Below are positions 10,708 through 21,646 of a stretch of DNA of 46,615 nt, piece by piece. Every line of letters starts with the position of its first letter. Positions within the stretch are counted from its first letter, which is position 1. The DNA is from Parcubacteria group bacterium CG1_02_58_44 (GTDB lineage: Bacteria > Patescibacteriota > Patescibacteriia > SG8-24): NCBI GenBank assembly GCA_001872545.1, contig MNWN01000003.1, forward strand, positions 1 to 46,615, in the 5' to 3' direction. The translations under genes and the position numbers were made by a program. The notes below the pieces were generated by a model. The model was not told the origin of the DNA. It saw only the letters and a list, made by a program, of their open reading frames with translations, and did not search any database.

Positions 10708-10766
10708 GATTGCGAAGCTACACTTGATCGGTAAAGAAACCACGGGCGTAAGCCAGGGGAGTGTCA

Positions 10767-10833
10767 TCGGCGGCTCCTTGTAACACAAAACTCCGCTTTG
10801 GGCGGAGTCTTGTCGTGGAGCCACCTCCGGGGA
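10767..10833 (-). repeat. Left 67-bp direct repeat with tRNA-Thr 3' fragment (attachment-site-like)
   Basis: Identical to 11896-11962. Bases 10816-10833 equal the 3' end of the tRNA-Thr gene (CCA end, discriminator and acceptor 3' strand), and the rest is its terminator hairpin and T-run. Downstream the two copies diverge at once. Confidence 0.8.
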
Positions 10834-11876: not shown

Positions 11877-11895
11877 ACCTCCCCGTTCGATCTCC

Positions 11896-11962
11896 TCGGC
11901 GGCTCCTTGTAACACAAAACTCCGCTTTGGGCGGAGTCTTGTCGTGGAGCCACCTCCGGGGA
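11896..11962 (-). repeat. Right 67-bp direct repeat, overlapping intact tRNA-Thr
   Basis: Identical to 10767-10833. It includes the tRNA terminator (ACTCCGC/GCGGAGT, 11919-11937, with the T-run on the minus strand at 11918-11910) and the last 18 bases of tRNA-Thr. Confidence 0.8.
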
Positions 11963-12020
11963 TCGAACCCGGGACCTCTGCTTTACGAAAGCATTGCTCT
12001 GCCAGCTGAGCTAAGGTGGC
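11945..12020 (-). tRNA. tRNA-Thr (anticodon CGU)
   Basis: The 76-base minus-strand sequence folds as a complete cloverleaf: acceptor GCCACCU/AGGUGGC, D arm GCUC/GAGC, anticodon arm UGCU/AGCA with loop UUCGUAA, T arm CCGGG/CCCGG with loop UUCGAUC. The discriminator is U and CCA is encoded. Anticodon CGU reads ACG (Thr). Its 5' end is 3 bases from the stop of the mazG-like gene, so the two are co-transcribed and RNase P must cut right after the coding sequence. Confidence 0.95.
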
Positions 12021-12373: not shown

Positions 12374-12447
12374 TGGAGCGGGGTACGGGAATCGAACCCG
12401 CGTTGCCTGCTTGGGAAGCAGGTGTTCTGCCATTGAACTAACCCCGC
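12374..12447 (-). tRNA. tRNA-Gly (anticodon CCC)
   Basis: 74 bases on the minus strand: acceptor GCGGGGU/ACCCCGC, anticodon stem CCUGC/GCAGG with loop UUCCCAA, T arm GCGGG/CCCGU with loop UUCGAUU, U discriminator, CCA encoded. The anticodon CCC reads GGG. A 63-base segment covering its 5' half and leader is repeated upstream at 12635-12697. Confidence 0.95.
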
Positions 12448-12471
12448 AGCTGTTCGACGGCTTTGTCGCCT

Positions 12472-12492
12472 AGCCGCACCGAATGTGCGGCT
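12472..12492. other. Hairpin in the spacer between truncated and intact tRNA-Gly
   Basis: AGCCGCAC and GTGCGGCT pair perfectly (8 bp) around a 5-base loop. The spacer 12461-12634 holds no gene; a further weaker CCGGG/CCCGG pair lies next to this hairpin. Confidence 0.5.
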
Positions 12493-12617
12493 TCGTTGCC
12501 CGGGTTGGCGCCCGGTCCTGCACTAGTTCGGACCGTTCGGCGCTCGCGTGTTCGCATCTGGACGGACACTCACCGCTCGCTGCCAACCCTTCTCCTTCCC
12601 TTCGGTTTTTTGGATAA

Positions 12618-12684
12618 GCGGTAGGGCAGTCGAACCGCGTTGCCTGCTTGGGAAGCAGGTGTTCTGCCATTGAACTAACCCCGC
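12618..12684 (-). pseudogene. Truncated tRNA-Gly copy
   Basis: From its 5' end at 12684 through the anticodon arm this copy is identical to tRNA-Gly(CCC), including 13 bases of leader (12685-12697). At the T arm one C is missing and the sequence then diverges, so the T stem and the acceptor 3' strand cannot pair properly. It lies between the minus-strand promoter and the intact tRNA, so it would be transcribed as part of the leader. Confidence 0.75.
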
Positions 12685-12776
12685 AGCTGTTCGACGGTTT
12701 TTCGTTCAGTCGTCAGCCTTGTCGGCCAGCAAATGCCTGATGCGCAGCTTCTTCACCTGTACCCGCAACGTCACGT

Positions 12777-20040: not shown

Positions 20041-20069
20041 CACAAAAAGAAAACGGCCAAATTGGCCGT
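20041..20069 (-). terminator. Minus-strand terminator of module A
   Basis: ACGGCCAA, A, TTGGCCGT, with TTTCTTTTTGTG after it on the minus strand. Nearly the same stem and tail recur at 21002-21027. Confidence 0.7.
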
Positions 20070-20198
20070 GTGAGTCGGTTGGGTCGGTTGTTGGAGCTTG
20101 TATCTTCCTACAGTAGATGATCATGACTGTAATGTTGATCCATCCGCTCTGATCGACTACAGTCGACATTTGTCGGTCTTTAATGGCAAAGCCTCCTT
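20041..20198 (-). other. Minus-strand micro-gene or small RNA module A
   Basis: A strong AAGGAGG (minus strand, 20198-20192) stands 7 bases before an in-frame ATT at 20184; the next in-frame ATG is at 20169. The frame reads ATT-KDRQMSTVVDQSGWI and then NITVMIIY, and stays open through a terminator (ACGGCCAA/TTGGCCGT at 20053-20069 with a T-run on the minus strand). The N-terminus and TVMIIY part resemble micro-gene C at 21433. The lack of an ATG at the expected place and of a stop before the hairpin means that it may be decayed, non-AUG initiated, or RNA only. Bases 20199-20360 are otherwise empty. Confidence 0.35.
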
Positions 20199-20360
20199 CG
20201 ACGATCTCTTCCGTCCATTCGTTAATCTTTTTTTTCTAGATTCTTCTTGACCACTAGGTCAGAGGCATCACTCGCCAAAAAAACTTAACCTTCTCCATTT
20301 CTGTCGTCTGGCGACGTTTCTTTATAGCAAAGGTTAGTTTTGAAGTCAATCCCCTAAATT

Positions 20361-20597
20361 ATGTCCATCGAAATAGATCGTGAACGGACGGAAACCTACT
20401 GGGAAAGGAGACGGCTCAATGAGAGCGTCGAGCATGACCTGCTGACCAGGCTTGAGGCCGGCCAGGAGTGCATGCCGGACATCATCAGCTGTCCGGTGGC
20501 TTCGTGTCGCTGTCCGCTGACGGTCAAGTTCTTGGCCGACCGCATCGAGTTGGCCTGTTCCAACTGTGGCTTCCGTCAGACGGTCAAGCGCGGATAG
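20361..20597 (+). CDS. Small zinc-ribbon-like protein
   Basis: 78 residues. The N-terminal half is charged and helical (IEIDRERTETYWERRRL); the C-terminal half carries Cys at about 37, 44, 49, 51, 66 and 69 (CPVASCRC and CSNC), a zinc-ribbon-like arrangement with beta strands between the pairs. No DNA- or RNA-binding partner is evident. It has no clear promoter or Shine-Dalgarno. A single perfect DnaA box (TTATCCACA) lies at 20611-20619 just past the stop. Family not recognised. Confidence 0.65.
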   Translation: MSIEIDRERTETYWERRRLNESVEHDLLTRLEAGQECMPDIISCPVASCRCPLTVKFLADRIELACSNCGFRQTVKRG

Positions 20598-20724
20598 GGA
20601 GACTGTCTTTTTATCCACATCTGGTCGGTTTTTTGTTTGGCTGGTAGGTTCGCGCTGTCGATGGAACGGCTGTGGACAGCTCAGCCGTTAAAGTCGTTTT
20701 TAACTTCAATTAGCCAATCTACTT

Positions 20725-20994
20725 ATGGCTCTCACTAAGATCTGCGAACAGTGCGACATGGAAATGCGTCTCATTCCGGCCGGGATCAGCAAGGCCAAGA
20801 ATAAGCCCTATTCGGCCTTCTGGACCTGCGATAAGCGGACTGGAGGCTGTGGTGCCACGGCCAACGCGGAAGGTGAAAACTCCGCCGCTCCGGCCGCTCA
20901 GTCTCGTTCGGCGGCGAATGCGACCGCTCAACCGGACCGATTGGCCTCAATCGAGTCTAAATTGGACCGGATTTTGGAGTTGTTGGAGAGATAA
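20725..20994 (+). CDS. Zinc-ribbon protein with C-terminal coiled coil
   Basis: 89 residues. CEQCDMEMRLIPAGISKAK, then FWTCDKRTGGCG gives a four-Cys zinc ribbon (CxxC...CxxxxxxC) similar to topoisomerase-type C4 fingers and to small CPR proteins with MRLIPAG. An Ala/Ser-rich linker follows (residues 50-70) and then a short coiled coil (SIESKLDRILELLER) likely to mediate oligomerisation. It may bind single-stranded nucleic acid; this is inference. The minus-strand terminator of module B begins 8 bases after its stop. Confidence 0.7.
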   Translation: MALTKICEQCDMEMRLIPAGISKAKNKPYSAFWTCDKRTGGCGATANAEGENSAAPAAQSRSAANATAQPDRLASIESKLDRILELLER

Positions 20995-21001
20995 TTTTGG
21001 C

Positions 21002-21129
21002 AGCAAAAAGAAAACGGCCAAATGGCCGCTGATGAAGGTATATCTGTTCTACGTCCTCTCAACAAGGATGTAGGTCAGCATGATGACGACCATGACGGTG
21101 GCATGTTTTCCGTCACTTGTCTCTCTAAT
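21002..21129 (-). other. Minus-strand micro-gene or small RNA module B
   Basis: A minus-strand frame from ATT at 21129 (first ATG at 21093) to TAG at 21049 ends in HATVMVVIMLTYILVERT. Its LTY segment resembles ILVTYLETV of micro-gene C. A terminator follows at once (CGGCC/GGCCG, 21015-21027, then TTTTCTTTTTGCTG), nearly identical to that of module A. No Shine-Dalgarno is seen, so this may be a relic or a small RNA. The surrounding gap 20995-21380 has no other credible gene. Confidence 0.3.
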
Positions 21130-21380
21130 TGAGAGATGGCTATCTATAATTTTTATTTTGTCACCCCTCGAGCTAAGTCAGTTGTTGGCTCTCAGCTCTG
21201 CTTCTTCTATGGCCCTCGATCCATCTTGTTGAGAATAGGTGAGAGTTTCGTGTCCATGAAAAAGTTTGACCTGCTCCATGAAAGGATCCTTTCTGATTGT
21301 GAATCCAACTTAGACTTATCAGATTGATTACGTGCAAGCAAGTTAAAGATAAAATGATCGGAGATAGGTGCGCTTCTGTA

Positions 21381-21405
21381 TTGAAAAAACAGCCGAGCGG
21401 CTGTT
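21381..21405 (-). terminator. Minus-strand terminator of micro-gene C
   Basis: AACAGCCG/CGGCTGTT stem; TTTTCAATAC follows on the minus strand. Confidence 0.75.
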
Positions 21406-21432
21406 TTAGAGAGTTTTGACTGGAATAGAGGG

Positions 21433-21519
21433 TCAGACGGTTTCAAGGTAGGTGACCAAAATAATTGTATCCACTGTGCCGTCTTTACTTTGGAATAGAG
21501 CAATTTGTTTTTTCCTCAT
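21433..21519 (-). CDS. 28-residue microprotein divergent from hrcA (micro-gene C)
   Basis: ATG at 21519 follows AAGGAG at 7-base spacing, and the TGA at 21435-21433 is followed 27 bases later by a terminator. The peptide is a basic start (MRKKQ) followed by a hydrophobic stretch (TIILVTYLETV), so a short membrane-associated peptide is possible. A minus-strand TATAAT at 21613-21608 sits back to back with the hrcA promoter, and the CIRCE operator lies upstream of it, so it could share heat-shock control. Modules A and B have similar C-terminal segments. No known family. Confidence 0.5.
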   Translation of the reverse strand: MRKKQIALFQSKDGTVDTIILVTYLETV

Positions 21520-21587
21520 TTAGGAACTCCTTTGATCTTTATTTATCATTGATTAGCAGAAGTCTGTAGGCCACGAACATGTGAAAG

Positions 21588-21615
21588 TTGACGTTTTTCA
21601 GGCGAGGATTATACT
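21588..21615 (+). promoter_or_regulatory. hrcA promoter (with divergent minus-strand -10)
   Basis: TTGACG, 16 bases, TATACT. The start would fall at the edge of CIRCE. The overlapping bases 21608-21613 read TATAAT on the minus strand. Confidence 0.75.
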
Positions 21616-21619
21616 GCCT

Positions 21620-21646
21620 TTAGCACTCGGACAATCGGAGTGCTAA
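21620..21646 (+). promoter_or_regulatory. CIRCE operator (HrcA-binding site)
   Basis: TTAGCACTC, nine bases, GAGTGCTAA: an exact match to the CIRCE consensus, 10 bases before hrcA and over its predicted transcription start. HrcA represses the cluster from here in the absence of heat stress. Confidence 0.97.

What the first reader, a model, noticed from the sequence alone, without database searches (positions are those of the whole stretch)
20041..21519. Three similar minus-strand micro-gene modules ending in terminators
Modules A, B and C each encode a short peptide with a hydrophobic end containing a TVMxxI/LVTY-like part, and each is followed by a hairpin plus T-run; the terminators of A and B are almost the same. 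Only C has a normal Shine-Dalgarno and ATG. They lie between small zinc-ribbon genes next to hrcA. This could be a microprotein family, a type I toxin-like peptide group or decayed repeats.
Basis: partly seen in the sequence, partly recalled or inferred. Interest (0 to 1): 0.6.

Follow-up and report, generated by a model that had tools for sequence, protein, structure and literature searches.

The report
Decaying cluster of small-protein genes
Two of the three 'micro-genes' next to hrcA in this uncultured Uhrbacteria-related bacterium are broken copies of an unnamed, patchily distributed family of roughly 60-residue soluble proteins, and the third is a 28-residue stub of uncertain kinship, so this looks like small genes being lost rather than new microproteins or toxins.

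Summary
The modules are real but were read too short. B is one 76-codon frame (21279-21049, minus) with Shine-Dalgarno, ATG and terminator, broken by one TGA at codon 34. A belongs to the same family, with two compensating homopolymer frameshifts, no Shine-Dalgarno and no stop before its terminator. A profile of 17 sequences from 16 other genomes, without A and B, picks out only B (E 5.5e-9) and A (0.0015) in the six-frame window. The TGA sits on the family's nearly invariant Trp; reading it as W raises B from 34.4 to 45.6 bits. AlphaFold gives B a confident beta-alpha-beta-beta fold (pLDDT 95). Homologues occur in about 6-8% of 381 sampled genomes of the class. The congener Ca. Uhrbacteria RIFOXYC2_FULL_47_19 lacks A and C and keeps only B's Shine-Dalgarno region and terminator. 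C (28 aa) only weakly resembles the family's C-terminal hairpin (p 0.003-0.02) and has no convincing homologue. Best reading: a small-gene cluster in late pseudogenisation. Toxin and DNA-repeat readings are disfavoured; recoding or assembly error remain possible but unlikely. The family passes no Pfam or NCBIfam cut-off; Cse60-like proteins are the nearest lead. What the intact proteins do is unknown.

The parts
20101..20298 (-). Module A: frameshifted family member; no Shine-Dalgarno; frame has two TAG and no stop before the terminator
   Evidence: Profile without A and B: 15.7 bits raw, 31.0 bits with the middle read in the other frame; frame open to 19906; sequence
20277..20283 (-). T7 run, first frameshift site of A
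   Evidence: Direct reading
20228..20235 (-). A8 run, second, compensating frameshift site of A
   Evidence: Direct reading
20043..20069 (-). Terminator of A
   Evidence: exact 20-mer shared with B
21049..21279 (-). Module B: 76-codon family member with one internal TGA
   Evidence: E 5.5e-9 with the independent profile, 45.6 bits with TGA read as W; AF2 pLDDT 95
21178..21180 (-). In-frame TGA at the family's nearly invariant Trp
   Evidence: alignments
21287..21292 (-). Shine-Dalgarno AAAGGA of B
   Evidence: flank 93% identical in the congener
21003..21030 (-). Terminator of B
   Evidence: conserved in the congener
21433..21519 (-). Module C: 28-aa ORF, possible truncated family member
   Evidence: Suggestive only; absent from the congener
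21527..21533 (-). Shine-Dalgarno AAAGGAG of C
   Evidence: Direct reading
21384..21407 (-). Terminator of C
   Evidence: -11.7 kcal/mol, z -5.0

Best explanation
The modules are a small cluster of genes for a family of about 55-75 residue, probably soluble, beta-alpha-beta-beta proteins, each gene with its own terminator, transcribed away from hrcA and now being lost in this lineage. B was inactivated recently by a nonsense mutation at its nearly invariant Trp. A carries two homopolymer frameshifts, lacks a Shine-Dalgarno and has no stop codon before its terminator. C is probably a truncated remnant that keeps a start site and the last beta-hairpin. The congener has gone further: A and C absent, B reduced to its Shine-Dalgarno region and terminator. 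Shown here: family membership of A and B, the lesions, the congener state. Predicted: the fold. Inferred: present lack of function, the origin of C, and the direction of change for A and C, since loss in the congener and gain in this genome cannot be told apart. For the intact proteins I commit only to a non-essential small cytoplasmic protein, possibly oligomeric or ligand-binding; this last step is a weak guess from fold class.
For: Independent profile (17 sequences, 16 other genomes) hits only B and A in the six-frame window. The TGA is on the nearly invariant W and costs 11 bits. None of the intact homologues listed has a stop inside the conserved region. Congener: 22 nt where A lies, remnant of B at both ends, no C. 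Confident fold for the read-through of B. One syntenic homologue pair has dN 0.22, dS 0.94, so the family is under purifying selection there. Simulated neutral decay loses B's score beyond about 0.2 substitutions per site, while neighbours have dS 1-2.7 between the two species, so B broke late.
Against: Only one congener is available, so no dN/dS for A, B or C. A MAG consensus can carry errors in homopolymers. C's kinship is weak, and several tests were run on one short peptide. The timing argument assumes B is ancestral, and the simulation used homologues that are in the profile's training set. B keeps a good start and terminator, which would also fit a gene still expressed.
Confidence: 0.8

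Rival explanations
1. The genes still work through recoding: near-cognate tRNA-Trp reads the UGA in B as Trp, the very residue the family needs, and transcriptional slippage on the T7 and A8 runs restores the frame of A.
For: UGA sits at the nearly invariant Trp; the rest of B is well preserved; both lesions of A are in homopolymers.
Against: TGA is an ordinary stop here (16 of 45 genes listed by hand). Trp codons are among those most easily turned into stops, so the position is not surprising. A needs two slips, lacks a Shine-Dalgarno and lacks a stop. The congener has lost all three.
Confidence: 0.06
2. Assembly or sequencing error makes intact genes look broken.
For: The window is a MAG contig (51 contigs); A's lesions are one-base changes in homopolymers of 7 and 8.
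Against: B's lesion is a substitution, not an indel. A also lacks a Shine-Dalgarno and a stop. The congener shows independent loss.
Confidence: 0.07
3. C, or all three, are type I toxin-like hydrophobic peptides.
For: C has a good Shine-Dalgarno, ATG, a short hydrophobic stretch and a strong terminator.
Against: A and B belong to a family with a soluble predicted fold. C's hydrophobic run is too short for a membrane span. Rfam finds only tRNAs. No convincing homologue of C in 380 other genomes of the class.
Confidence: 0.03
4. C is an unrelated short ORF whose resemblance to A and B is chance.
For: Profile score of 1.2 bits lies inside the shuffle range; no homologue; absent from the congener.
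Against: Same strand, same place and same start-ORF-terminator layout; p 0.003 against B and 0.017 against A.
Confidence: 0.4

Closest known systems
Cse60 sporulation protein family (Pfam PF10957)
   Same: Size of about 60 aa; a viral model named Cse60 is the second-best fold match of B (TM 0.68/0.81); two homologues give sub-threshold Pfam hits, E 0.012 and 0.018.
   Different: No homologue reaches the Pfam cut-off (16.1 bits at best against 20.7). The own genome has no PF10957 match. Cse60 function is unknown (PMC8863042).
PHROG phrog_13248 (phage protein of unknown function)
   Same: 7 of 19 family members match, best E 3.6e-5; a Bacillus phage relative found by tblastn matches it too.
   Different: The match covers mainly the N-terminal half; no function is known.
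Dodecin and Alba folds (PDB)
   Same: Make up many of the top solved-structure matches of the model.
   Different: All E-values are 0.03 or worse, TM mostly 0.4-0.55; no sequence match in the PDB. Shape resemblance only.

Membership tests
Unnamed small-protein family defined here (alignments A3, A5) | Profile match by a model built without the tested sequence | tested here: met
   A and B: E 0.0015 and 5.5e-9 across the six-frame window
Unnamed small-protein family defined here (alignments A3, A5) | Near-invariant F, N, W and Y | tested here: met
   B has F, N and Y with TGA in place of W; A has all four once its middle is read in the other frame
Unnamed small-protein family defined here (alignments A3, A5) | Uninterrupted reading frame | tested here: not met
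   A: two frameshifts and no stop before its terminator; B: one TGA. They are filed as broken members
Unnamed small-protein family defined here (alignments A3, A5) | Profile match of C | tested here: inconclusive
   1.2 bits; pairwise and block tests p 0.003-0.02
Cse60 (PF10957) | Pfam gathering score | tested here: not met
   Best homologue 16.1 against a cut-off of 20.7; own genome no match
Cse60 (PF10957) | Same fold | tested here: inconclusive
   Model-to-model match, E 6e-3, to a viral protein named Cse60
Type I toxin peptides | Membrane-spanning hydrophobic peptide | tested here: not met
   About 8 consecutive hydrophobic residues in C by direct reading; B predicted as a globular alpha/beta protein
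Type I toxin peptides | Antisense antitoxin RNA | not testable with these tools
   No RNA data; Rfam finds only tRNAs in the window

The most novel reading that the evidence does not exclude
B is still made, by UGA read-through that inserts the Trp its family requires, and A by slippage on two homopolymer runs: small genes kept alive by recoding in a streamlined genome.
Probability: 0.06. Interest if true: 0.6.

Novelty: new member of a known kind. Interest (0 to 1): 0.25.

Why it matters
It turns three apparent micro-genes into a case of gene loss caught at two stages in two congeners, and it points to an unannotated small-protein family found in roughly 6-8% of sampled genomes of this class, with no Pfam or NCBIfam model above threshold. 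It also warns that short ORFs followed by terminators can be the tails of broken genes.

Tried and rejected
Pfam, NCBIfam and PHROGs scans of B, C and the family: nothing above a curated cut-off. PDB by sequence: none. Phage and plasmid tblastn: only weak phage matches, best E 5e-4 in Staphylococcus phage JS1. Global UGA reassignment: rejected, TGA is a normal stop. A stop-count argument for recent loss of B was too weak (P of at most one stop is 0.19 even at 0.5 substitutions per site), so I turned to a profile-score simulation; that choice was made after seeing the first result. A two-block score for C did not place the tyrosine anchor and I give it little weight; the pairwise shuffles were run afterwards, so C has had four tests and only some reach p below 0.02. 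Modules as generic terminator repeats: rejected, the terminator core has only two exact copies in the genome. dN/dS of the L068/L069 pair was uninformative (saturated, doubtful orthology).

Full report
Observation. On the minus strand, three units end in a hairpin plus T-run at 20069-20043 (A), 21030-21003 (B) and 21407-21384 (C). A and B share the 20-mer CAAAAAGAAAACGGCCAAAT exactly, with 0 copies expected by chance in the window; the 15-nt core has two exact and two one-mismatch copies in the 1.06-Mb genome. In A the frame starts at ATG 20298, has two TAG in the raw frame, and reads as MEKVKFF-LASDASDLVVKKNLEKK-INEWTEEIV...TVMIIY if the frame changes at T7 (20283-20277) and back at A8 (20235-20228). 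A's frame has no stop before its terminator (open to 19906). C is a 28-aa ORF with Shine-Dalgarno AAAGGAG.

Family. A three-row profile found homologues in the class. A 19-row alignment then matched 31 of 381 genomes at E<=0.01, the own genome included. The low-scoring tail of that list includes stretches inside long unrelated ORFs (for example L074 and L075), so about two dozen genomes is the safer count. In a phylum-wide sample 7 of 380 genomes matched, the own one and one other of the class included. None of the nine other genomes held for the own family matches. Because the 19 rows contain A and B, I rebuilt the profile from the other 17 rows, which come from 16 other genomes (two rows are the halves of one fused protein, L035/L063). 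That profile finds only B and A in the six-frame window, E 5.5e-9 and 0.0015. Writing W for the TGA raises B from 34.4 to 45.6 bits; reading the middle of A in the other frame raises it from 15.7 to 31.0. F, N, W and Y are the near-invariant positions; the TGA is the W. Tandem or fused copies recur (L063, L065, L072).

Anatomy of homologues. I printed 18 homologues with their start regions and 70 nt downstream and judged them by eye. Most have a strong Shine-Dalgarno. About half (for example L055, L021, L059, L061, L062, L063, L065, L068, L069) have a hairpin with a T-run shortly after the stop. L056 and L058 are followed at once by another gene, and L060 and L070 show no clear terminator. This was not counted against a control, so 'gene with its own terminator' is a common layout, not a family rule. 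Neighbourhoods look different from genome to genome except within a genus; neighbours were not annotated systematically. One syntenic pair (L060/L070) has dN 0.22 and dS 0.94, a sign of purifying selection, from one pair of 53 codons.

Fold. B with TGA read as W, aligned with 24 homologue sequences, gives AF2 pLDDT 95 and pTM 0.80, strand-helix-strand-strand. PDB fold matches are weak (best E 0.03, many dodecins and Alba proteins). Among viral models the second match is a protein named Cse60 (TM 0.68/0.81), and two homologues give sub-threshold Cse60 hits in Pfam. This is a lead to Cse60, not membership. The function of Cse60 is unknown (PMC8863042).

Congener. Its gene order is the same, but it has 22 nt where A lies. 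B is reduced to a 30-nt 5' flank with the Shine-Dalgarno (93% identical) and the terminator, and C is missing. Having both ends of B argues that B was in the common ancestor and its coding part was deleted in the congener. For A and C, gain in one genome and loss in the other cannot be told apart.

Timing. Random mutation of B or of four homologues shows that a score at B's level is rarely kept beyond about 0.2 substitutions per site. The four homologues are in the profile's training set, so the bound is rough. Neighbouring genes have dS of about 1 to 2.7 between the two species. If B is ancestral, it was constrained for most of that time and broke late. A simpler count of stop codons would not have shown this.

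C. The profile gives 1.2 bits, inside the range of shuffles. A two-block score gives p 0.02, but its best placement does not use the tyrosine anchor. Smith-Waterman shuffles give p 0.003 against B and 0.017 against A, the latter as an ungapped match of all 28 residues to the C-terminal end of A's family domain. These are four tests on one short peptide, and one of them is negative. The best match of C outside its own locus has E 0.13. I take C as a probable truncated remnant, at about 60%.

Mechanism and rivals. The most likely account is decay of a dispensable gene cluster. Recoding (UGA as Trp, slippage at homopolymers) is not excluded but unlikely, since TGA is a normal stop here (16 of 45 genes that I listed by hand) and A has further lesions. 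Assembly error is not excluded for A's frameshifts. A type I toxin is not supported.

Composition. The module regions have 38-44% GC against 57% for the window, but several other intergenic stretches are 41-48%, so this alone does not show foreign origin.

Noticed in passing
21588-21646: A sigma-70-like promoter (TTGACG, 16 nt, TATACT) followed by a perfect CIRCE-like operator TTAGCACTC-N9-GAGTGCTAA just upstream of hrcA (pair I7), conserved in the congener with a change inside one arm at most.
   Followed up: partly
10764-10833 and 11893-11962: A 70-nt direct repeat (99% identical) whose second copy overlaps the 3' end of the tRNA-Thr gene (11945-12020, minus), 1.13 kb apart: looks like att sites of a small integrated element.
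   Followed up: no
12374-12701: Two tRNA-Gly(CCC) genes 237 nt apart share a 67-nt repeat; one of them scores poorly in Rfam (33.1 bits), perhaps a decaying duplicate.
   Followed up: no
20361-20597 and 20725-20994: The two small zinc-ribbon-like genes are conserved in the congener with dN/dS of about 0.07-0.08 but pass no Pfam or NCBIfam cut-off; the first has a relative in G007.
   Followed up: partly
L063 1495-1869 and L072: Proteins carrying two family domains in one chain, so tandem duplication with fusion has happened in the family.
   Followed up: no
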